From Firmicutes bacterium M10-2 (GTDB taxonomy: Bacteria > Bacillota_I > Bacilli_A > Erysipelotrichales > Erysipelotrichaceae): a stretch of DNA of 64,000 nucleotides. Both the position numbers and the translations under genes were made by a program. Positions within the stretch are counted from its first letter, which is position 1. Each line of letters begins with the position of its first letter. The notes below the pieces were generated by a model, which worked only from the letters and a program-made list of their open reading frames with translations, was not told where the DNA came from and did no database searches. The DNA lies in the NCBI GenBank assembly GCA_000403415.2, contig KE159681.1, positions 26,956-90,955 of the forward strand. Reading direction: 5' to 3'. Positions 41,574 to 57,400 of this stretch are shown piece after piece.

Positions 41574-42263
41574 ATGGGAAGAAAGCCAAAGTACTCACAG
41601 TCTCAGAAAGTCTGGGCCTGTGAACAGTATCTAAGTGGCCAAGACAGTGCACGGAGTATTGCCTATCAACTTGGCATGGGAAAGTGCGGTAGGAGAATAA
41701 TCTTAGAATGGTCAGCAATGTATCAGGCTCATGGAGCATCGACATTTGAGGATAAACCACGCAACAATTCTTATTCTGCCTCCTTCAAGGCACTTGTGAT
41801 TGAGGACCACTTTCTTAACGGCCTGTCTCCGGAGCAGTTAGCCGTGAAGTATAACATTCCATCCCGCCAAACAATTTGGCAGTGGATCAACAAGTATAAT
41901 AGTCATGAAGAAATTAAGGACTACAGTCCCTGTCCGGAGGTCTACATGACAAAGAGAAAGAAATCCACTATCGAAGAGCGCGAAAAAGTCGTGACCTGGT
42001 GTCTGGAACATGATCGCAACTATAAGAAGGCGGCAGCCAAATTCGAATTCAGCTATGGCCAGGTGTATTCATGGGTGACCAAGTATGATTCGTCCGGAGT
42101 GAATGGAATCGAGGACCGGCGTGGAAAGCGTAAGGAAGAGTCTGAACTGACGGATACTGAGCGGCTTACTAGAGAACTCAGACTGGCCCAGGCTAAGATG
42201 AAGGAACTGGAAAGAGAGAATGCACTCTTAAAAAAAGTGAACGAATTAGACTGGAGGTGGTAA
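41574..42263 (+). CDS. IS3-family transposase OrfA
   Basis: The 229-residue protein has two to three helix-turn-helix segments (about 10-55, 70-105 and 130-165) and a C-terminal leucine zipper (LTRELRLAQAKMKELERENALLKK). This is the IS150-type OrfA layout. At its end an A7 run (42230-42236) forms A_AAA_AAA. The -1 frame stays open from there into orfB, so a programmed -1 frameshift would make an OrfAB transposase. Confidence 0.88.
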   Translation: MGRKPKYSQSQKVWACEQYLSGQDSARSIAYQLGMGKCGRRIILEWSAMYQAHGASTFEDKPRNNSYSASFKALVIEDHFLNGLSPEQLAVKYNIPSRQTIWQWINKYNSHEEIKDYSPCPEVYMTKRKKSTIEEREKVVTWCLEHDRNYKKAAAKFEFSYGQVYSWVTKYDSSGVNGIEDRRGKRKEESELTDTERLTRELRLAQAKMKELERENALLKKVNELDWRW

Positions 42264-43287
42264 AAGGCTGCTCCAAGGCCAGAAAGACTGCTTTGGAGAG
42301 AGCCATCCGACATAGAAAATATGATCTCATCAAGAAACTGCACCAGAAAAGAGGCTGGTCTATAGGCTGGATGTGCAGGGTACTGGAGATCAGCCGGGCA
42401 GCTTACTATAAATGGCTCAATCGCGGCACGACCATGCAGGAGAAAGAGAATGCGCGGCTGCTCGAAGAGATCCGGAGGATCGCTGATGAAACCAACAATT
42501 TATTCGGATACAGAAAAATGACGATGGTCCTGAACCGGTTAAGGAAAGAGAACGGAAAGACTCCCATCAACCGAAAACGGATCTCAAGGCTCATGAGCAT
42601 TCACCAGATCTATTCCAGCTTCAGGCCCACATCCCGAAAGAGATATCCTAAAGTGACTCCAGAAGAGAAAATGGAGAACGTGCTGGAAAGGAAGTTCATG
42701 GCAGACAAACCTAATCAGAAGTGGTGTACGGATGTGACGGAGATGAAGCTGGCTAATGGAACGAAGATCTATATCAGCACCATTCTGGATCTGTATGACC
42801 GCTATCCTGTGGCATGGCATATAAGCACCAGAAATGACACAGAGCTTGTGAACAAGACTCTGGAGAAGGCGCTGGAAAACAACAATCCGGATGGAATTCT
42901 CTTTCACAGTGACCGGGGTTTCAGTACACTCGCAAGGTATTCCAGACGTACTTGAAGAACAACGGCTTGATATCATCGATGTCACGGGTCTCTCACTGCA
43001 TTGACAACGGGCCCATAGAAGGATTTCAGGGAATCATCAAGGATCTGTGCAGAATTCTGTATCCGAAGGCCAGAACCAAAGAAGAAGTGGTCGAAGCGTT
43101 GAACGAAACGTATCGGTTTTATATCGAAGAATATCCACAGCAGAGGTTTCATGGGCTGACCAGCGGTGAAGTCAGATTCGGGGCACTCGGGACAGAAACG
43201 CCTCAGACTTATCCGATACCTGTGAACCCGGGTATTAGAAAGTACTGGGAAAATATCGCAAAGAAGGGAGAACGAAAAACCCTGTAG
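42257..43287 (+). pseudogene. IS3-family transposase OrfB, frameshifted
   Basis: The DDE integrase has WCTDVTEMK (first Asp), LFHSDRG (second Asp) and DNGPIEGFQGIIK (Glu). The frame breaks after HSDRGF near 42,920. Restoring one base gives the expected FQYTRKVFQTYLKNNG and rejoins the downstream frame to 43287. All catalytic residues are present, so the element is inactive only through this single base loss, or through a sequencing error. The N-terminal HTH_21 region is intact. Confidence 0.87.
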
Positions 43288-43308
43288 ACAGACAATCCAT
43301 CTACAGGG
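43280..43308. terminator. Hairpin at the end of the IS element
   Basis: CCCTGTAGA pairs with TCTACAGGG around an 11-base loop, overlapping the orfB stop. There is no long T-run. Confidence 0.55.
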
Positions 43309-45786: not shown

Positions 45787-46647
45787 TTAATTTGTCTGGC
45801 TATTTTCGATTTCTTTAAGGGTACGACCATCTTTTGCTTTCCAAGTTTGAGGGCCGCTCACACTATATCCAAGAATGAAATCTGCTGCAGCTGATGAGCT
45901 CGAAAACAAAATGTCCTCAGTAGTCGTTAAATCTTTTACTTTACCCGCATCAAATAGCTTCTGACGTAACTTCTGCATGCTTGCGCTCAGTGACTTAACA
46001 GATGTCTTTTCATTTACAGTGGCACCTTCAAAGACAACGAAACCTTCTGTTGTTACTTTTCCAGTTGCGCTGGCTGAACCAGTAGAAAGCGACAGTACAT
46101 CATCATCAGTAGTTGCTGATGGGGAATCTGCCTGTGCATAAGGTTCCAAAACTTTATAACCTAGCGCATTTATAAGTACTTTAACGTTATCTACAAATTC
46201 CTCCATCACCGCAATCTGAGATTCTTTCATAACAGTATTGCGATACGTATTCTTTGTTAATACTAAATATCTCTTACTGCCTCTGGCAATCTCTACGAAA
46301 CGATTCTCAAGATATCTAATAAGAGCTTTATTCAAATCTCTACCAACAAAGATAACTGCAGTGCTCCAATAATATTTTTCTTTTTCAGACTGGTAATCGC
46401 GTAAATGCTGTACCAGTCTTTCTTTTACATTTTCTGCTTCTCCAATGTAAACAGAATCAGAACCATCATCTTCTTTACAGAACAAGAAATAGACCCCGGC
46501 CTGAGTTATATCATCACGATTACAAGAGGCAACCTCGATACGAGGAATCTTGATTGCCTTTCCATTCCAGTTAGATAATTCAGCTGTGATGAGGCTATCT
46601 GCTGTTCCATTCACTAAGAATAATTCTATAGATTTTCCGTATGCCAT
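45787..46647 (-). CDS. GIY-YIG nuclease-fold protein with DUF4357
   Basis: The 286-residue protein has a GIY-YIG-like domain (about 45-150: GVYFLF and VYIGEAENVKERL) and a C-terminal DUF4357 domain (about 205-280: GFVVFEGATVNEKTS...LRQKL). The Arg and Glu of the nuclease core appear present (ERLVQHL and ENRFVE). It is the last gene of the defence operon, 18 bases after res. Proteins of this type often accompany restriction-modification genes. A nicking or regulatory role is inferred. Confidence 0.85.
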   Translation of the reverse strand: MAYGKSIELFLVNGTADSLITAELSNWNGKAIKIPRIEVASCNRDDITQAGVYFLFCKEDDGSDSVYIGEAENVKERLVQHLRDYQSEKEKYYWSTAVIFVGRDLNKALIRYLENRFVEIARGSKRYLVLTKNTYRNTVMKESQIAVMEEFVDNVKVLINALGYKVLEPYAQADSPSATTDDDVLSLSTGSASATGKVTTEGFVVFEGATVNEKTSVKSLSASMQKLRQKLFDAGKVKDLTTTEDILFSSSSAAADFILGYSVSGPQTWKAKDGRTLKEIENSQTN

Positions 46648-46665: not shown

Positions 46666-49600
46666 TTACTTAGTCACCATATCAAGAAGAGTCTTATAGC
46701 TATCAACAACGTCGTAAACAACCTCACCATTGCTGATGGCCTTAAAGTGCTCTCTTGCGCAGTGAATCTTTGATTCTTCGATTAAACGAAGCTGCATCGA
46801 ATTCATGGAACCCTTTGTCTCAGCAACAAAGTAGATATGCTTAACGGTTCCTTCATAGAATGCAATCGCCCAGTCAGGATTATAATGTCCAACAGGTGTT
46901 GAAATATAGAATCCATCTGGTAATTTAACGTATACTGCTACGTTTGTATTTGTATCCAGTTCAGTAGCAAATGCCTGCTCGTTGGATGAATCATAAACGA
47001 TATGGTCATACAGATGCTTCTTAGCCTTCATCGCATTTACACCTAAGCGGCCTTTGATAGTCGGGTCAGTAAATACATCTGTGCCGTACTTATCATCCAT
47101 TACATCGTAAGTGATGTGTTCGATGATAGCAGTTGCCTTTTCATCATTAATAAGCGCTGCAGCCTTAATGATGAATTCTTCCGGATTGTTCTTAAACTGA
47201 TTGAATGTTGCTGGTTGGATTCCCTGAAGAATCTGAATAACAGCTTTTCTTGTAAGACCAGTCTCATCAACAAGTTTTCCAATCAAGTCATATTTAACAT
47301 TTGAACTTGCAGCAACTACATTACCGTAGCTTGCAGATTCTTCCTTAACAAAGGATGCACCGCTTACAAGTTCTTCTTTAGATTTAATCTGTTCCATTGC
47401 TCCGGTTTCAACTTTGAAGTAAATCTTAGAAACACGAAGCTTTCTGTCCAATGAATCGATAGATTTTCTTACTAATTCATCAGTATCAAAATCAACGACA
47501 TATACAGACTTAGAATTAATCTTCGACCACAATGCCTTGAACTCAGGCATAGCAAGTTTGCTTTCATCAACCTCAAGCTCAACATTATTACTACGAGCAT
47601 TTTCAGGCTGCATTGCTCTGCTGTCATAGATAGAATCAATAATCTCAATTACTGATGCAGCAGAATCAGCTACTTCTTCAGCAACTTTCAATTCGCCATT
47701 TGCCTTATCCTCATAGTACTTATCAGTAAGAACACCCTTCTTATCAATGTAGCCATTTACAATAAGGTCGAAGTGAATCGCTCTACCTGTATCACCATCA
47801 ACAACCTGCTCGTTACCCTTATCGTCCTTGATTACTTTACCAATAAACAATTCTGCAGTAACTGCCTTTGGTCTGTCAGCAACTGCTTCTGCAATTTCAT
47901 TCTGAAGGCCCTTAGCAAAGCTGTCATAGCTTTCACTTGCAATAACAGTAAGCACATTTACATTATGTACATCGTTACCAAGTACATTTGTATCCATACG
48001 CTCACCGTCCTGATTTACGCAAAGGCGGAGACCACGTCCTACTTCCTGACGCTTACGAACATCACTGCTGCTCTGCTTCAAAGTACAAATCTGGAATACG
48101 TTAGGGTTATCCCATCCTTCACGAAGAGCAGAGTGTGAGAAGATAAAACGTACCGGTGACTTCTTCGGATTTCTATCAAGAAGAAGCTCTTTGTTTTTCA
48201 TAATAAGGTCGTATGCATCAACGTCATCCGTTGTTGTTTCCTTACGTGCAACCTTACTATCAATCATCTTTCCTTTTTTATCGATAGAGAAATAGCCTGC
48301 ATGAGTCTTGTCTGCAGAGATTGCAGAAAGGTACTTCATGTAGTCGTCTTCTCCCATGCCAATCTGAAGGTTGCTGATAACATCCTTGTATTCTTCTTCG
48401 AACATCTCAGCATAACTACCATTCATTGGCTGGCCAGCAGCGTCGTACTGCTTGTACTTTGCAACTTCATCAATAAAGAATAATGAAAGAACTTTAATAC
48501 CTTTATAGAACAATTCTCTTTCTCTCTGAATATGAGAAAGGATTGTTTCTCTAATCTGAATGCGGCGAAGTTGGTCTTCTGATACCTTACCAATTACATC
48601 GCCTGCATAAAGTTTAATACCGTTGATAAACTCTACAGAGTCGTCACGTCCATCAATTCTGGATACAACGAATCCCTGCTTGTACTCTTCCATCTGGCCG
48701 GAATTATCATAAAGGTTATAGCCTTCTGAAACAGTACGAGTAATCTTTCTAATGCCGGTTGCCCCTTTCATATCGAATTGAATTGTAGCTGTAGGTGCAG
48801 CCTTTGAAAGATTGATGCTTTCTAAGTAGATATAGCTTTCAGTCGCTGTACTACCAGATTCTGTGATACCCTTAACAGCAATCTTCTTAACAAGACGCTT
48901 GTTGTAGGCTTCCATAGCATCCAAACGGTAAATCATATTATAGATACTATCAGACTTGTGAGTTGCAGAATAACGAAGGGTCATTAAAGGATTAAACTGC
49001 TTTAAGTTTTCCTTTGTCTGCTTACCTTCTACAGACTGCGGCTCATCAATAATCATGATAGGATTTGTCTTTGCAATAATGTCAATCGGACGACGAGAGC
49101 GGAACTCATCCAATTTCATGTAAATACGTCTTGCATCCTTACCCTTAGCATTAAATGCCTGAGAGTTGATAATCATAACGTTGATAGAATTATCTGATGC
49201 AAAACGGTCTATTTCAGTAAGCTGTGTAGAATTATAGATAAAGAAACGAATCTTCTTACCATACTCCTCAGCAAAGTGCTCCTGTGTTACCTGAAATGAT
49301 TTATATACACCTTCACGGATGGCGATGCTTGGTACAACAACAATAAACTTACTCCAACCATAAGCACGGTTAAGCTCATACATTGTCTTGATGTATGTAT
49401 ACGTCTTACCAACACCGGTCTCCATTTCAATAGTCAGATTAAATCTGCCTTCCAACTTCATGGATGGCTTAATCTGATTAGCTCTCTGTATTGTATTTAT
49501 ATGTTCCAGAATCAGTCTGTCATTTAATTCCGGCACAATCTTTTGGTTACTCCAACCAGTAAAGTCCTCTTCATCAGTTAATGATTGCTGAATATATCCT

Positions 49601-49713
49601 GAACCTCTATCCATCATATAAGACGGAGTCAAATAAGGTTGACCAGCAAATACATCAACTACAGCTTTGGCAGCATCTGCTTGGAATTTCTGATGCTTAA
49701 ATTGTAGCTTCAT
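46666..49713 (-). CDS. Type III restriction enzyme Res subunit
   Basis: The 1015-residue protein has a superfamily 2 helicase core with Walker A METGVGKTYT (about residue 100) and the DEPQ box of Type III Res proteins (IIDEPQSVEG, about 220). SATHKS and a motif VI-like QEVGRGLR follow. A C-terminal PD-(D/E)xK nuclease is indicated by YNPDWAIAF and ETKGSMNS (about 945-970). Res translocates and cuts DNA when bound to Mod at sites of the wrong methylation state. It lies 12 bases downstream of mod. It appears intact. Confidence 0.94.
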   Translation of the reverse strand: MKLQFKHQKFQADAAKAVVDVFAGQPYLTPSYMMDRGSGYIQQSLTDEEDFTGWSNQKIVPELNDRLILEHINTIQRANQIKPSMKLEGRFNLTIEMETGVGKTYTYIKTMYELNRAYGWSKFIVVVPSIAIREGVYKSFQVTQEHFAEEYGKKIRFFIYNSTQLTEIDRFASDNSINVMIINSQAFNAKGKDARRIYMKLDEFRSRRPIDIIAKTNPIMIIDEPQSVEGKQTKENLKQFNPLMTLRYSATHKSDSIYNMIYRLDAMEAYNKRLVKKIAVKGITESGSTATESYIYLESINLSKAAPTATIQFDMKGATGIRKITRTVSEGYNLYDNSGQMEEYKQGFVVSRIDGRDDSVEFINGIKLYAGDVIGKVSEDQLRRIQIRETILSHIQRERELFYKGIKVLSLFFIDEVAKYKQYDAAGQPMNGSYAEMFEEEYKDVISNLQIGMGEDDYMKYLSAISADKTHAGYFSIDKKGKMIDSKVARKETTTDDVDAYDLIMKNKELLLDRNPKKSPVRFIFSHSALREGWDNPNVFQICTLKQSSSDVRKRQEVGRGLRLCVNQDGERMDTNVLGNDVHNVNVLTVIASESYDSFAKGLQNEIAEAVADRPKAVTAELFIGKVIKDDKGNEQVVDGDTGRAIHFDLIVNGYIDKKGVLTDKYYEDKANGELKVAEEVADSAASVIEIIDSIYDSRAMQPENARSNNVELEVDESKLAMPEFKALWSKINSKSVYVVDFDTDELVRKSIDSLDRKLRVSKIYFKVETGAMEQIKSKEELVSGASFVKEESASYGNVVAASSNVKYDLIGKLVDETGLTRKAVIQILQGIQPATFNQFKNNPEEFIIKAAALINDEKATAIIEHITYDVMDDKYGTDVFTDPTIKGRLGVNAMKAKKHLYDHIVYDSSNEQAFATELDTNTNVAVYVKLPDGFYISTPVGHYNPDWAIAFYEGTVKHIYFVAETKGSMNSMQLRLIEESKIHCAREHFKAISNGEVVYDVVDSYKTLLDMVTK

Positions 49714-49725
49714 AGCTGAACCTCC

Positions 49726-51628
49726 TTAAATAACTTTTACTCTTGTATCAGGCGCCATCAACTTAAAGATTTCTCCAACATTAATCTTTGAAGGGCTATT
49801 TGCAAAACTGCTGTCACGGAATACAGCACGAAGAGGTTGTCTTTTTGCAATCTCTTTGATTACGCTGTCAGGAACGTTCTCATCGAAGCAGGCAATAAGG
49901 TCACCATCATTATAATTGTGTACCGTGCATCCACTAATCTGTTCAGAGGTATAAGGAAGAGATAAAGGAAGTCCCCATTCAAGAAGACAACCGAACAACA
50001 AGTCAAGGTCATTACGGTCAGACTTAACATTAGATTCAAGCATGGAAAGCAAGTCCTGACTATATTCTGCAGGATTGTAGTAAACATCATTCATATTTGA
50101 ATCCGCAAGTTTTAATACGCGGAATCCAATATCTAACCCCTGACTAAAAAGAGTATTTTCCTCTGCTATGGCTTTACCAGCACGACGAATTCTCTCCTTA
50201 CCAAGTTCACATATCGTTTTGAATCCATACTTTTTAGCCTCAGTTCCATCAGCACATTCTTCAGGATATTGAACCATAATATATTTTCTATGACTTCCTG
50301 CAGTACTATTTAATCTCATAACTGCATGTGCAGTTGTTGCAGAACCTGAAAAGAAATCCATAACAATTGAATCTTCGTCACTTCCGATTTGTAGCACTTT
50401 TTCAATAAATCCAATTGGCTTAGGAAAGTCGAAAACCTTCTGTGTATCAAAAAGATTTCTGATATCACGAGTAGCTTTTTTATTTCCTTCAACGTCATTC
50501 CAAAGATTACCGGGCTTTTTAGTTCTATTCTCTAAATAGAACTTCTGATATACTTGCCAAACTTCCTCACCTTGTCTTTTCGTTTTCTTCCATGCAAGCA
50601 TATTATTTTCAGCCATTTTTTTAGCTGTATCTGGTGAGCAAATCCATCTACTTTCATAACCTGTTGGGCCTATAGGATAAACTTGTGTTCCATCAGGAGC
50701 TTCGATAGGGAAAAACATAGTAGGTCTATCTTCTCGTCTATCTTCTCCGCCAGTTCTTCGTAACGGTCTAATTAAATACCTACCCTTCTCATCAATCTGG
50801 TCGTAAATTTTCGCATCTTCCTCACTCATCGGAAGTCCGTTAATTGAAGCCAATGCAATGTTTTTTGAGTAAATGAGCATATAATCCAACTCATTTACCA
50901 AACCATCGAACCCCCCCACCAGTTGGTGTACCTGTAGCTCTAGAAACACATGTTAGAAAATTTGATGCTCCAAACACTTCATCACATATTTTTTTCAAAT
51001 TTTCCTGCTCGTTATCATCAATTGAAATAAAAATCAAGCCATCATCAGCCAGTAAGTTTCTAGCTAACATGAGTCTTTGGTAAATCATAGAACACCACTT
51101 AGAGTGGAAACGAGGGTTAGATTTCGGGTTCTCATCAAACTGCTTATTTCCATCCTCATCATACATTCCGATTCCTTCATCGTACTCGTCTTGCATCATC
51201 ATAAAATTATCTGGATATACAAATCTATCCGACCCAGTATTATAAGGAGGGTCGATATAAATCACCTTAATTGCACCTAGATAGCTTTCTTGAAGCAGTT
51301 TTAATACATCCAGATTATCACCTTCGATATAAAGATTCTCTGTTGTATCCCAATTGACACTTTCTTCTTTACAAGGGCGTAATGTTTTTCGTATAGGTCT
51401 GTTACCTTCTACAATTGCTGCTTTCTTGCCAACCCAAGTAAACTCATAAGCTTCATCGCCCTCAAGCACATCGCCAGAAAGCATCTGCTTTAAAAGTTCA
51501 AAGTTGATGGCTTTCTTAGGATTTCCGTTTTCATCAACTGTTTCTGTGATGCAATTAGGGAAAAGAGCACCTATCTTCTCAATATTCTGAGCAGTCATAT
51601 CGACTGATTCCATTCTCATTTTATCCAT
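49726..51628 (-). pseudogene. Type III DNA methyltransferase Mod, split at a G-tract (phase-off)
   Basis: Two overlapping frames make one Mod protein of about 634 residues. The first (start 51628) has DPPYNTG (about 130) and stops after TGTPTGGGVRWFGK. The second continues FDGLVNELDYMLIYSKN, includes FFSGSATTAHAV (about 424) and runs to 49726. They break at seven consecutive G (minus strand, 50917-50911). Six G would restore TGGGFDGL. Motif order (IV before I) marks a beta-class N6-adenine enzyme. Without Mod the Res subunit should be inactive. Confidence 0.9.
50911..50917 (-). repeat. Seven-G homopolymer in mod
   Basis: The minus strand has G7 after ACTGGT. The tract length sets the reading frame of mod: G7 gives an early stop, G6 the full-length protein. 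Confidence 0.95.
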
Positions 51629-52281
51629 TACATTGCCTCCAATTCTTTCTTGAGCTTCTTAAGCTCATTGTTCATTTGCATCTGTTTATTAAGCTGCTTT
51701 TCCTTACGGATTTTCGCTTGCAATGTTGCTATCTGTTTTTGCAATGCCTGCTTCTGTTCATCTCGTGCAACCGATTCTTTCAGGCTTTCACCAGCAGCTT
51801 CAGTCTTTAACTTATCTCCGGCTATCTGACGCACGAAGTTTTCATACACCGCATCAACATTTAAGCCTTCCAACTTTAATGGCAGCTCGTCTTCAGTCAA
51901 CCATTCTGTGTGGTAATATCCGTTTACTTTGAATGCTTTATTACCAGATGCTGCAGCTTCCTTATATCCAATCCACGCTTGATACTTTCCTTGATACTCC
52001 AGTAAAAACAAGATGTGATAAGGGATTTCCTTATCAATCTGTCTTAAGAGACTATCATCGAGTACCGGACTGCTTAATCGAACCTCAAACACCTCCAGTT
52101 CCGTTACATCGGTTCCGGCAGCAAGATTCGTTGTAGATGCTGCTATTTTATTTTTCCAATAGATTATTCTGACCTGCTCAACAAATATCTTTTTTAGTGC
52201 AGGTGAGATATCCATGTTTTCATAGAATTTCTGCTTGGGAATTCGTTTATTAAATTCCGTTGTTTTTGGCAATCCTATCAT
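51628..52281 (-). CDS. DUF4391 protein of the defence operon
   Basis: The 217-residue protein matches DUF4391: GLPKTTEFNKRIPKQKFYEN at the start, an FVEQVRIIYWKNKI segment and ILFLLEYQGKYQAWIGYKEA in the core. A predicted coiled coil closes it (KQALQKQIATLQAKIRKEKQLNKQM...). The family has no proven activity but repeatedly occurs beside helicase and Type III modification genes. It probably bridges or senses DNA in the complex. The stop shares its last base with the mod start. Confidence 0.85.
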   Translation of the reverse strand: MIGLPKTTEFNKRIPKQKFYENMDISPALKKIFVEQVRIIYWKNKIAASTTNLAAGTDVTELEVFEVRLSSPVLDDSLLRQIDKEIPYHILFLLEYQGKYQAWIGYKEAAASGNKAFKVNGYYHTEWLTEDELPLKLEGLNVDAVYENFVRQIAGDKLKTEAAGESLKESVARDEQKQALQKQIATLQAKIRKEKQLNKQMQMNNELKKLKKELEAM

Positions 52282-52295
52282 CGTTCGCCCTCCGT

Positions 52296-55200
52296 TTATT
52301 TAACAACCAAGAAGCAAATAAGTTCGAAGTCATCCAATCCTGATACAGCAGACATTAATGCTGATGTACCACCAGCAGAGAACAAGCTATCAATATCGCT
52401 TTCTTCTTTGCAATCAATGATTGAGTTGATTGCTTCGCTAAGAAGTTCTGACATCTCAGTCATGTCTCTACCATCATCTGTTTCTTCATTGAAGCGCTGG
52501 CACAATTCCTTAATAGGTTCTTTCTTGCCACGACAAAGAAGTCTGATATCATCTAACATCTTCTTTGGATTCAGATAGTCACAGATGACTTCACCATCTA
52601 TTCCGATATAAACCATGTAGAATGGATGGATTCTGTTCTGGTTATCTATATTTACACTGTTGTTTATATTTTTAAGAATGAATATTACCCCTTCCGGTAA
52701 CTCTTCTGTTGCTGATACAACAGCATGCATTCCTTTTGGCTTCTTATCTAAGTCACCATGATTCTTTACATATTCAAGAAGGTCTAATCTAAATTCATTT
52801 AAACCTAAATCCATGATAGAAATACCACTGGACATATCCTCAATATCGACTACTTCTTCTTGCAGACGCTTAAGCTGCTGCTTACGATATTCAAGGTCAC
52901 CTTTTTCCTCTGAATTGATAAGGTCATCGTCACCGGTAGAAGTCATGACAGATATCTTCATTCTTGTTTCTACTCGGCCCTTAAGATTGATGTATTCGTC
53001 CAAATCCATATCAGGCCAAAAGTTTACAAGCTGAATCTGTGAATTTCTACTACCGATACGATCTACTCGGCCAAATCGCTGAATGATACGAACAGGGTTC
53101 CAGTGAATATCATAGTTTACAAGGTAGTCGCAATCTTGAAGGTTCTGACCTTCAGAGATACAGTCTGTAGCAATCAGCACATCAATCTCTGTTTTGCTTC
53201 CTGGCATCAAGGCATCTCTGCCTTTTGAAATTGGCGAGAAGCAAGTCAGCACGTTATTAAGTGTAGCCCTGAATCCCTTGATAGTTGTCTTTCCATCAAT
53301 GGAACCAGTGATTACCGCCGTATCCAAGCCGTACTTCTTTTTGATATACGTACTAACATTGTCATAAAGATACTCTGCAGTATCCGAGAAAGCAGAGAAA
53401 ATCAATACTTTCTTGTTACCCGGATTGATTGGATTCTCGATTTTCTCAGAGACCAACTTCAACAATTCCTGAAGCTTACTGTCATGCTCTGGAGTAATAT
53501 CCGCAACCAGCAAAGTCAGCAATTCAAGAACCTCTGCATCTGCTTTTAATTCTGTACGCCATGTCTTATAGTCCATATCAGCCAGCTCGATTTTTATTTT
53601 CTTACCAACTGTGAAGTATTCTGTATTACCATCATCTATATCAAACTCTGAATCAGATGCTTCATACATGTCAATGTCTGCTGCACCGTACTTTTCAAAA
53701 TCATCTATAGCCTTGATAGTACTTTCAATCAACTTCTTAATTCTCGTAAGCGTAAGCTGGAATGAGTTAACTGAGCTTTCCAGACGCTTTAAGAGGTTGA
53801 TGCTCATCAACTTTCTGATACCTTCTTCACGACCTGTCTGTGTAAGGTTGTCTCCCTTATTATGAGTAAGGTCGATATACTTCTGTATCTTGCTAGGGAA
53901 GATGTAGTTTGATGGCGTATAGACGCACAATGTGAGCAACATCAACTGTTCGTATATTTCGTTGTAGTTGATAGCTGAGCTCAGATCTGTTAACTGAGGT
54001 CTACGTGAAATAGGTTTCTTTCTTTCAGGGAACTTTCCAATCTCAGCTGTATCATAATATTTCTCGATATGCTTTCTTGAACGAGCAATCGTAACACTAT
54101 CGAGTAATTCAAAGAAATCAAAATCAAGTGTTCTAAGAAGTGCATCTGTTGTTCTTGCTTCCGGTTCCAGTTTGCTCCATGTATTGAAAGCTCTCTGAGC
54201 CTGCTTGAAAATTTCTTCGATTGTCTTTGTTGTATTCAGTTGCTTATTCATATTCTCAGAATCACCTTCATAGGCGATAGCAAGCTGATTCTTTAAGTCT
54301 ACAAATCTATTATTTACCGGAGTTGCAGACAGCATTAAAACTTTAGTCTTAACACCAGATCTGATGATTTTATCCATTAACTTCACATATCGATTCTCAC
54401 GAGTATTTGCATGAGTTCCTGCTCCGTTACGGAAGTTATGAGATTCATCAATTACCACAAGGTCATAGTTACCCCAATTCAATCTATCTAAGTCCAGACC
54501 ATTAGAGAAACCATGGGCTCTTGATAAATCTGTATGGAACAGAACATCGTAGTTAAGTCTATCTGCTGCAATCGGATTATTTACATAGTTATCTTTATAA
54601 GTATTCCAGTTTTCTGCTAGCTTCTTAGGGCAGAGAACAAGAACGCTTTTATTTCTGTTTTCGTAATATTTCACTACTGCTAGCGCAGTGAAGGTTTTAC
54701 CAAGACCAACGCTATCTGCAAGGATGCATCCGTTGTAACGTTCAAGCTTATTAATAATGGCTAACACAGCGTCCCTCTGGAAATCATACAAAAGACTCCA
54801 AATCTTGCTCTGTTTGAATCCGGTAGCTTCGTTAGGTAATTCATCTTCTGAAATATCATCAAGAAATTCACTGAACACATGATATAAAGTCATGAAATAA
54901 ATAAATTCCGGTGAATTCTCATTGTAGGCAGCTGTAATGTTTTCAATAACAACATCAGTTACATCCTGCAACTTATCGTGGTCATTCCACAATGTTTCAA
55001 AAAGCTGCATATAAGAAGCAGAAAAAGGCGCTTCAAAACGGTTAACCATGTTGTAGCTGTTGTTACCACGTTCGCAACCAATATCAACAGTTGTAAAACC
55101 ATTCATTGGCATATAGGCAACCTGCTGCTGTTTGTTTGCTATAGTAACAAATCCTCCCATATTTTCTCCGGTAGTATTGGATTTAAAAGTAGCTTTACGC

Positions 55201-55532
55201 TTAATCCAGTCAGCACATTCTTTTGCGATTGCTTTCTGAGTCATCTCGTTTCTAAGCTTTAACTCAAACTCTGTACCGTAAAGACTGCTCTCACGGTTTA
55301 ATCTTGGGATGTAAAACTCTCGTTTCTGCTTTTCCGCTTTCTCGGTAACGAAAGTTGGAGAAGTGAAAATAAAACGACATTCATCCACTGACTCCAGTTG
55401 CTTTTTTAATTCCTTATAGGCATACATAGAAAAGCAAGCCGCAGCAATCGATACCTTACTGCCCTTACTGAGAGTCGATGCCATATCGTCACGGACTATT
55501 TCCGTAACATTATCAAATACTTTCACTTCCAT
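52296..55532 (-). CDS. PLD-domain SNF2-like helicase of the defence operon
   Basis: The 1078-residue protein has a phospholipase D-like N-terminus (about 1-180; HKD catalysis is not evident). A SNF2-type superfamily 2 ATPase follows: Walker A ADSVGLGKT (about 272), DESH box (VIDESHNFRNG, about 360), LSATPVNN and motif VI IQRFGRVDRIGSRN (about 820). A long helical C-terminus ends it. Such proteins remodel or translocate along DNA. It is the first gene of a five-gene operon with DUF4391, mod, res and the GIY-YIG gene, which implies a Type III-associated defence module. Confidence 0.9.
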   Translation of the reverse strand: MEVKVFDNVTEIVRDDMASTLSKGSKVSIAAACFSMYAYKELKKQLESVDECRFIFTSPTFVTEKAEKQKREFYIPRLNRESSLYGTEFELKLRNEMTQKAIAKECADWIKRKATFKSNTTGENMGGFVTIANKQQQVAYMPMNGFTTVDIGCERGNNSYNMVNRFEAPFSASYMQLFETLWNDHDKLQDVTDVVIENITAAYNENSPEFIYFMTLYHVFSEFLDDISEDELPNEATGFKQSKIWSLLYDFQRDAVLAIINKLERYNGCILADSVGLGKTFTALAVVKYYENRNKSVLVLCPKKLAENWNTYKDNYVNNPIAADRLNYDVLFHTDLSRAHGFSNGLDLDRLNWGNYDLVVIDESHNFRNGAGTHANTRENRYVKLMDKIIRSGVKTKVLMLSATPVNNRFVDLKNQLAIAYEGDSENMNKQLNTTKTIEEIFKQAQRAFNTWSKLEPEARTTDALLRTLDFDFFELLDSVTIARSRKHIEKYYDTAEIGKFPERKKPISRRPQLTDLSSAINYNEIYEQLMLLTLCVYTPSNYIFPSKIQKYIDLTHNKGDNLTQTGREEGIRKLMSINLLKRLESSVNSFQLTLTRIKKLIESTIKAIDDFEKYGAADIDMYEASDSEFDIDDGNTEYFTVGKKIKIELADMDYKTWRTELKADAEVLELLTLLVADITPEHDSKLQELLKLVSEKIENPINPGNKKVLIFSAFSDTAEYLYDNVSTYIKKKYGLDTAVITGSIDGKTTIKGFRATLNNVLTCFSPISKGRDALMPGSKTEIDVLIATDCISEGQNLQDCDYLVNYDIHWNPVRIIQRFGRVDRIGSRNSQIQLVNFWPDMDLDEYINLKGRVETRMKISVMTSTGDDDLINSEEKGDLEYRKQQLKRLQEEVVDIEDMSSGISIMDLGLNEFRLDLLEYVKNHGDLDKKPKGMHAVVSATEELPEGVIFILKNINNSVNIDNQNRIHPFYMVYIGIDGEVICDYLNPKKMLDDIRLLCRGKKEPIKELCQRFNEETDDGRDMTEMSELLSEAINSIIDCKEESDIDSLFSAGGTSALMSAVSGLDDFELICFLVVK

Positions 55533-56500: not shown

Positions 56501-57109
56501 CTATTTTGAGAAATTGTATAAAATAGTTGAATCGTCATTTTCTTTAAGCGGATCATCTGAATAGCAAAAGCTAACGTTAGGTTCATTCTCAAAATTTCTA
56601 AATAGAATAGGCCTTAGTAGTTTTGTTTTATCTGAATTAAAATCACTTCTTTTTCCACTATTAGGATTTCTTCTTATTTTATAACAATAAATTTTATTCG
56701 GATCTTCAGAATCACTTATACTAAGCGACTTCACCATCGCACTTTTTTCCTCATCCGAGGTATTATCAGGAATTTTCATTGGAATTGCTTTTCCAAAAGT
56801 CTCAGTAAATTGTTTTAAAATATCTCCTAAGTTATCTTGATACTCAATGCCAAAATATTGTCTTAATGTTTTTGCATCAATTAATAATTTAAAAGAATTA
56901 GCTTCAATTTCCAATCCATCATTTAAATCGTCACGTTTCATAAAATGGATCTTTACTAATGCATACTGATTTACACGCTTTTCTTTACCTACAAATCTTT
57001 TTACAAGAACTATATATTCAACTGACTTATATCTAAATAGAAAACTACATATTGTCCAATTCCTATTAACCATATCATTTTTTAATTTATTTAGATTACT
57101 TAGTAACAT
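56501..57109 (-). CDS. Uncharacterised accessory protein, possibly DUF6037
   Basis: From ATG 57109 (GAGGGGG site) the protein has 202 residues: MLLSNLNKLKNDMVNRNWTI, then a mixed alpha/beta region and a C-terminal half with RRNPNSGKRSDFNSDKTKLL and SFCYSDDP. The pattern recalls proteins annotated as DUF6037, which I cannot confirm. No catalytic motif is clear. It lies between recombinase remnants and the defence operon, typical of accessory cargo. An in-frame start at 57178 lacks a ribosome site and overlaps the recombinase remnant. Confidence 0.65.
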   Translation of the reverse strand: MLLSNLNKLKNDMVNRNWTICSFLFRYKSVEYIVLVKRFVGKEKRVNQYALVKIHFMKRDDLNDGLEIEANSFKLLIDAKTLRQYFGIEYQDNLGDILKQFTETFGKAIPMKIPDNTSDEEKSAMVKSLSISDSEDPNKIYCYKIRRNPNSGKRSDFNSDKTKLLRPILFRNFENEPNVSFCYSDDPLKENDDSTILYNFSK

Positions 57110-57122
57110 AAAAAGAACCCCC

Positions 57123-57400
57123 TCACTTCTTCGAACTATATTTCTTATTCCTTCTATGTGTTCCATTCTCATCAACAACTAAATTACTGCGTTTTATCTT
57201 TTCTTCCTGAACAGCATCAAACAATTCTTTTGAAATAATAGACGAATGAGCATTATTTAACTTGTAAATACGACCTTCTTCGCCTCCTGCGTTAACTACC
57301 CGCAATACCTATGTACTTTTCATTACTGAGCATTTCTTCTACTGAACATTTAGGCCAGTTATCTTTCCTTGTTGGCGATTAATACTTCTATCTTTAAGTT
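57123..57400 (-). pseudogene. Large serine recombinase remnant beside rlmD
   Basis: The minus strand carries NWPKCSVEEMLSNEKYIGIAG and, after a break, KLNNAHSSIISKELFDAVQE, EEKIKRSNLVVDENG and KKYSSKK. These are consecutive landmarks of the recombinase and zinc-ribbon regions of large serine recombinases. N-terminal catalytic and C-terminal parts are missing. It sits next to the rlmD 3' end. Confidence 0.75.

What the first reader, a model, noticed from the sequence alone, without database searches (positions are those of the whole stretch)
50890..51000. Type III mod switched off by a G7 tract: possible phase-variable methylome
Both halves of Mod are intact and change frame exactly at seven G residues. 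Losing one G restores TGGGFDGL. Phase-variable Type III mod genes control phasevarions in several Gram-negative pathogens, but G-tract switching of mod is seldom described in Bacillota.
Basis: partly seen in the sequence, partly recalled or inferred. Interest (0 to 1): 0.75.

Follow-up and report, generated by a model that had tools for sequence, protein, structure and literature searches.

The report
Type III methylase silenced by G-tract
In this gut-type Gram-positive bacterium, the gene for a DNA-marking enzyme of an otherwise intact phage-defence system is put out of frame at a run of seven Gs, and relatives of the same gene break or change frame at G runs too, so it may be a random on/off switch; one genome cannot separate that from a chance knock-out.

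Summary
On the minus strand, mod has a G7 run at 50911-50917. The N-half (50891-51628) and C-half (49726-50949) are open and homologous to intact Mods on either side; the frame changes at the run, and six Gs would give one 633-residue Mod. The neighbouring genes (HKD/SNF2 helicase, DUF4391, res) are intact, so the system is probably OFF here. The phase-variation interpretation is plausible but not shown. Against it: G7 lies within this genome's background (28 G6, 3 G7 runs), MutS and MutL are intact, and intact homologues with the same recognition domain have no G run there. For it: G7+ runs are about fivefold enriched in this Mod family over flanking DNA (p=0.02, few counts). Lachnoanaerobaculum saburreum has a frame-breaking G10 in its mod, the only G8+ run in its 3.1 Mb genome. 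Two rabbit-gut Lachnospiraceae carry 94% identical mod 3' ends whose sole gap is the tract: G7 in frame, G8 out. A 7-G tract is a documented reversible switch in M. tuberculosis glpK. I judge reversible switching somewhat likelier (0.48) than a one-off hotspot frameshift (0.34). It is a new member of a known kind; the Lachnospiraceae relatives are the stronger case.

The parts
50911..50917 (-). G7 homopolymer (C7 on + strand), point of frame change in mod, at the start of the target recognition domain
   Evidence: sequence; alignment with intact same-TRD homologues
50891..51628 (-). mod N-half: catalytic motif IV DPPYNTG; ends in TGA after the tract
   Evidence: ORF, PF01555 positions 1-74, PADLOC MTase_III 2-231
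49726..50949 (-). mod C-half: rest of the target recognition domain, AdoMet motif I (FFSGSATTAHA) and C-terminus; frame open 11 codons upstream of the tract
   Evidence: ORF, PF01555 positions 109-215, PADLOC MTase_III 237-621
46666..49713 (-). res, Type III restriction subunit, full length (helicase plus PF19778 endonuclease domain)
   Evidence: PF04851, PF19778; PADLOC REase_III 1-987 of 989
51628..52281 (-). DUF4391 protein, conserved partner of this Type III variant
   Evidence: PF14335; present beside 30 of 51 related mods, some of them cut by contig ends
52296..55532 (-). SNF2 helicase (PADLOC HKD+Snf2, C3a139), first gene of the operon
   Evidence: PF00176, PF00271; PADLOC C3a139; beside 31 of 51 related mods
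45787..46647 (-). GIY-YIG plus DUF4357 protein downstream of res; accessory, rarely conserved with the operon
   Evidence: PF01541, PF14267; PADLOC PDC-S14; found near only 1 of 51 loci

Best explanation
A Type III restriction-modification operon (helicase, DUF4391, mod, res) is caught with mod OFF. Slipped-strand mispairing at a G tract at the start of the target recognition domain changes its length between six Gs (full-length Mod, methylation and restriction possible) and seven (Mod stops after 245 residues, with motif IV but without most of the recognition domain or AdoMet motif I). Res and the other partners stay intact because Type III Res has no sequence specificity without Mod, so OFF cells are simply unmethylated and unrestricting. 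The change is reversible, so a population should hold both states at a low switching rate, as in other contingency-locus mods. Shown here: the frame break at the tract, intact halves and partners, and G-tract length differences in homologous mods. Inferred: that the six-G form is active, that switching occurs in this species, and any effect on gene expression.
For: Frame change at the tract, with no other lesion in mod, res, DUF4391 or helicase. Catalytic motifs on both sides are intact. Homologues: L. saburreum mod out of frame at a G10 near codon 33, the only G8+ run in that 3.1 Mb genome, with RES, SNF2 and DUF4391 unbroken; two rabbit-gut Lachnospiraceae mods 94% identical over 658 bp with one gap, the tract, G7 in frame and G8 out. 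G7+ on the sense strand: 4 in 89.7 kb of related mods versus 6 in 715.7 kb of flanks, p=0.019. GGG codons are rare in this operon except at the tract. Homopolymer errors look rare in this assembly: 17 of the 18 A/T-7/8 and G/C tracts listed inside ORFs leave the frame open, as do most coding G6 runs and three G9-G10 runs. Precedents: M. tuberculosis glpK, a 7-bp poly-G reversible switch (PMC11898584); H. pylori modH.
Against: G7 (six when ON) is short: a Campylobacter phasome survey sets the cut-off at 7, finds 9-10 typical and notes that short tracts may mutate too slowly (PMC6321876). Mismatch repair is intact, unlike M. tuberculosis (my knowledge). In this genome the length fits the background, and the clear outliers are G9-G10 runs elsewhere. 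Same-TRD homologues have TG-Q-G (or TG-Q-D) and no run. The Lachnospiraceae tracts usually sit in a G(n)-TAC context that this one lacks. No second strain and no reads were available.
Confidence: 0.48

Rival explanations
1. One-off loss of function: a chance +1 G at a mutational hotspot inactivated mod in this lineage, and the operon is at the start of decay. G6-G7 is a hotspot but not a selected switch.
For: Tract length is within the genomic background. MutS and MutL are intact. Mods in this family also break at sites without G tracts: L071, L075, L078, L129 and the first L. saburreum mod. No G run in same-TRD homologues.
Against: No other lesion in an operon of about 10 kb. The G-tract break recurs in relatives and includes an in-frame/out-of-frame pair. 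Rare GGG codons are concentrated at the tract.
Confidence: 0.34
2. Sequencing or assembly error: the true tract is six Gs and mod is intact and expressed.
For: Only one consensus sequence of unknown technology is available (22 contigs), and homopolymers are the usual place for such errors.
Against: Nearly all comparable runs in ORFs (T7-T8, G6, G9-G10) leave the frame open, so the homopolymer error rate looks low.
Confidence: 0.12
3. Recoding: ribosomes or RNA polymerase slip on the G7 run, so some full-length Mod is made from the seven-G gene.
For: A G run is a slippery sequence, and the RNA 3' of it folds better than shuffles, z=-3.4.
Against: The frame needed is +1, not the classic -1. The fold is absent in same-TRD homologues (z=+1.2 and -0.5). 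The seven-G state is not conserved in any relative.
Confidence: 0.06

Closest known systems
Helicobacter pylori modH (Type III, poly-G phasevarion; PMC3230613)
   Same: Type III mod switched by G-tract length inside the coding sequence; allelic recognition domains.
   Different: modH tracts are 8-13 G, long and variable among strains, with experimental ON/OFF; here G7, one genome, no experiment.
Streptococcus suis ModS (PMC8125046)
   Same: Type III mod in a Bacillota; repeat length sets the frame; described there as the first Gram-positive Type III phasevarion.
   Different: GAGCA pentanucleotide repeat near the gene start, 17-21 copies; proven by Western blot and SMRT sequencing.
Mycoplasma mycoides MmyCI mod (PMC3498834)
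   Same: Type III mod with a repeat in the coding region; frame-shifted and in-frame clones found.
   Different: AG dinucleotide repeat, 10-12 copies.
Mycobacterium tuberculosis glpK (described in PMC11898584)
   Same: A 7-bp poly-G coding tract with gene-inactivating, reversible frameshifts.
   Different: Metabolic gene, not a methyltransferase; mycobacteria lack MutS/MutL (my knowledge), whereas this genome has both.
Lachnoanaerobaculum saburreum DSM 3986 mod (locus L065) and the rabbit-gut Lachnospiraceae mods L049/L079
   Same: Same Mod subfamily and operon; frame set by a G tract.
   Different: G10 near codon 33 and G7/G8 after motif I, each in a G(n)TAC context; the window tract is at the recognition-domain start and followed by TTC.

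Membership tests
Type III restriction-modification system | mod (beta-class N6/N4 amino-methyltransferase) beside res (helicase plus endonuclease) | tested here: met
   PF01555, PF04851, PF19778; PADLOC MTase_III and REase_III; closest solved chains are 6k0w Mod and 4zcf EcoP15I Mod
Type III restriction-modification system | functional full-length Mod in this genome | tested here: not met
   mod frame broken at G7; so this is a Type III operon by descent, not a shown active system
Phase-variable (SSR) mod / phasevarion | repeat tract in the ORF whose length sets the frame | tested here: met
   G7 at the frame junction; six Gs would be in frame
Phase-variable (SSR) mod / phasevarion | tract long or unusual enough to be hypermutable | tested here: inconclusive
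   Meets the >=7 G cut-off of PMC6321876 but lies within the genome background
Phase-variable (SSR) mod / phasevarion | length differs between strains or cells | not testable with these tools
   One genome per species; neither of the two held congeners matches the Mod. In homologues of other genera a one-G difference was seen
Phase-variable (SSR) mod / phasevarion | methylome and transcriptome differ between ON and OFF | not testable with these tools
   Needs SMRT or nanopore sequencing and RNA-seq

The most novel reading that the evidence does not exclude
Poly-G contingency switching of this DUF4391-associated Type III mod family is a recurrent strategy in gut and oral Bacillota. Tracts have been gained independently at different positions of mod (near codon 33, the recognition-domain start, after motif I). 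In some Lachnospiraceae this is part of a wider set of G7-G9 tracts followed by TAC, lying in genes that look surface-related.
Probability: 0.4. Interest if true: 0.62.

Novelty: new member of a known kind. Interest (0 to 1): 0.45.

Why it matters
If switching is real it would be a case of G-tract phase variation of a Type III methyltransferase in a commensal Bacillota, where the Type III phasevarion I found shown by experiment is S. suis ModS with a different repeat. It would mean that strain collections and MAGs can record RM systems as pseudogenes when they are only in the OFF phase. It also gives testable loci: L. saburreum DSM 3986 is a named culture-collection strain with a G10 mod.

Tried and rejected
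1) Same-species or near-identical alleles: none in 60 relatives, in about 400 genomes each of class and phylum, or in plasmids, phages or IMG/VR. The nearest same-TRD alleles are on Paraburkholderia and Shewanella plasmids (57%) and in a TGA-recoding genome (43%), all without a G run. 2) Split but functional methyltransferase (two proteins): not pursued further; the only C-half start is a GTG inside the N-half ORF and I saw no good ribosome-binding site just upstream (reading). 3) Programmed -1 frameshifting: wrong direction, and the RNA fold is not conserved. 4) A chance-only reading of the run: a G7/C7 run is expected about once per window, so length alone proves nothing. 5) The tract is not shared by most family members; of 46 full-length Mods in the first set only L049, L065, L079 and L086 have G7+ inside mod. 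6) The REBASE survey itself (Atack 2018) is not held; its 17.4% figure is taken from PMC7394358. 8) A script that compared frame breakage of mod with that of res and helicase stopped part-way: res broken in 2 of 43, helicase in 1 of 23; mod in 5 of 46, not a clear difference.

Full report
What is there. The window holds a minus-strand operon: a PADLOC HKD+Snf2 helicase (52296-55532), a DUF4391 protein (51628-52281), a Type III mod split in two frames (51628 to 49726), a full-length res (46666-49713) and, further down, a GIY-YIG/DUF4357 protein (45787-46647). The same order, helicase, DUF4391, mod, res, is found beside most related mods whose contigs are long enough, and on conjugative plasmids of Paraburkholderia and Shewanella. 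The operon is therefore a real and widespread Type III variant, and DUF4391 and the helicase belong to it.

The observation. The N-half carries motif IV (DPPYNTG); the C-half carries most of the recognition domain and motif I (FFSGSATTAHA). Each half matches the corresponding part of one Type III profile, and intact homologues align straight across the junction. Six Gs would give one 633-residue protein. The rest of the operon shows no lesion. In this assembly Mod cannot be made full-length by ordinary translation. Because Type III Res depends on Mod for sequence recognition (established for EcoP1I/EcoP15I; general knowledge), the system should be off.

Is the run remarkable? By length, no. 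The genome has 35 G6+ runs: 28 of six, three of seven, none of eight, two of nine and two of ten (counted). A seven fits the falling series; the nines and tens do not, and those are elsewhere. By position and codon use, somewhat. The operon avoids GGG (8 of 164 glycine codons, two of them the tract), and three same-TRD relatives read TG-Q-G or TG-Q-D here, encoded without a G run. Homopolymer errors look rare in this assembly, since 17 of the 18 comparable runs listed inside ORFs and most coding G6 runs leave the frame open.

What the relatives say. Of 46 full-length relatives in the first set, four carry G7+ inside mod (L049, L065, L079, L086), against six sense-strand runs in eight times more flanking DNA (p=0.019, small numbers, not corrected for relatedness). 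Two cases are telling. Lachnoanaerobaculum saburreum DSM 3986 has two adjacent mods; the second is out of frame at a G10 near codon 33, the only G8+ run in the 3.1 Mb genome, while RES, SNF2 and DUF4391 are unbroken. Its first mod is also broken, near an A7, so a sequencing cause cannot be excluded there. Second, two rabbit-gut Lachnospiraceae genomes share mod 3' ends that are 94% identical over 658 bp with a single gap, the G tract: seven in frame in L049, eight out of frame in L079. That tract lies in a short stretch that other family members lack. These examples make a G-tract switch in this Mod family credible. They do not prove it for the window, whose tract is at another position and has another 3' context (TTC rather than TAC).

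Mechanism. The likeliest account is slipped-strand change between six and seven Gs, giving ON and OFF cells. A seven-G coding tract is a documented reversible switch in M. tuberculosis glpK (PMC11898584), and a Campylobacter survey uses seven Gs as its lower cut-off while noting that short tracts may be too slow for true phase variation (PMC6321876). This genome has intact mutS and mutL, which should keep the rate low. The main rival is a one-off loss at a hotspot; several relatives have mods broken without any G tract, so mod loss as such is not rare. Assembly error and recoding are less likely.

Known or new. Type III mods with repeats are common: 17.4% in REBASE (cited in PMC7394358). H. 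pylori modH uses G tracts of 8-13 (PMC3230613), S. suis ModS uses GAGCA (PMC8125046) and M. mycoides AG repeats (PMC3498834). The window is at most a new member of this kind, with a short tract. The Lachnospiraceae relatives are the better place to test it.

Noticed in passing
L118:8649, 9213, 10301 (own genome G000:C12:306648-308309): Three G9-G10 tracts within 1.7 kb, all in open frames of two adjacent large genes that look like prophage tail or baseplate proteins (my reading of the sequence); the clearest phase-variation candidates of this genome.
   Followed up: partly
L022:3253-3261 (G000:C1:365752-365760): A G9 tract just upstream of the ATG of a response regulator gene, beside a histidine kinase and an ABC transporter; length change there could tune translation.
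   Followed up: no
L166-L185 and L160 (two rabbit-gut Lachnospiraceae genomes, G561 and G562): G7-G9 tracts followed by TAC are far commoner than expected (9 of 33 and 11 of 28 listed runs, against about 1 in 36), lie mostly in acyltransferase-like and other surface-looking genes by my reading, and several break the frame. This looks like a poly-G phasome with a shared 3' context; no paper on it was found in the library.
   Followed up: partly
L065:7111-10865: Lachnoanaerobaculum saburreum DSM 3986 has two tandem mods for one res; one is frame-broken near an A7, the other at G10.
   Followed up: partly
L049/L079: Closely related genomes (94-95% identical around the locus) with exchanged mod recognition domains (68% identity there), i.e. 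allele swapping at mod.
   Followed up: partly
window 42257-43300: IS3-type transposase second ORF has its own frame change near 42920, not at a long homopolymer.
   Followed up: no
L150/L151 (G472): A genome that reads TGA as Trp carries an intact Type III mod with the same recognition domain (43% identity), suggesting wide exchange of this domain.
   Followed up: no
window 50830-50935: The RNA just 3' of the tract folds into a 10-bp hairpin (z=-3.4) that same-TRD homologues lack; probably incidental.
   Followed up: yes
window 56501-57178: DUF6037 gene next to the RM operon, function unknown.
   Followed up: no
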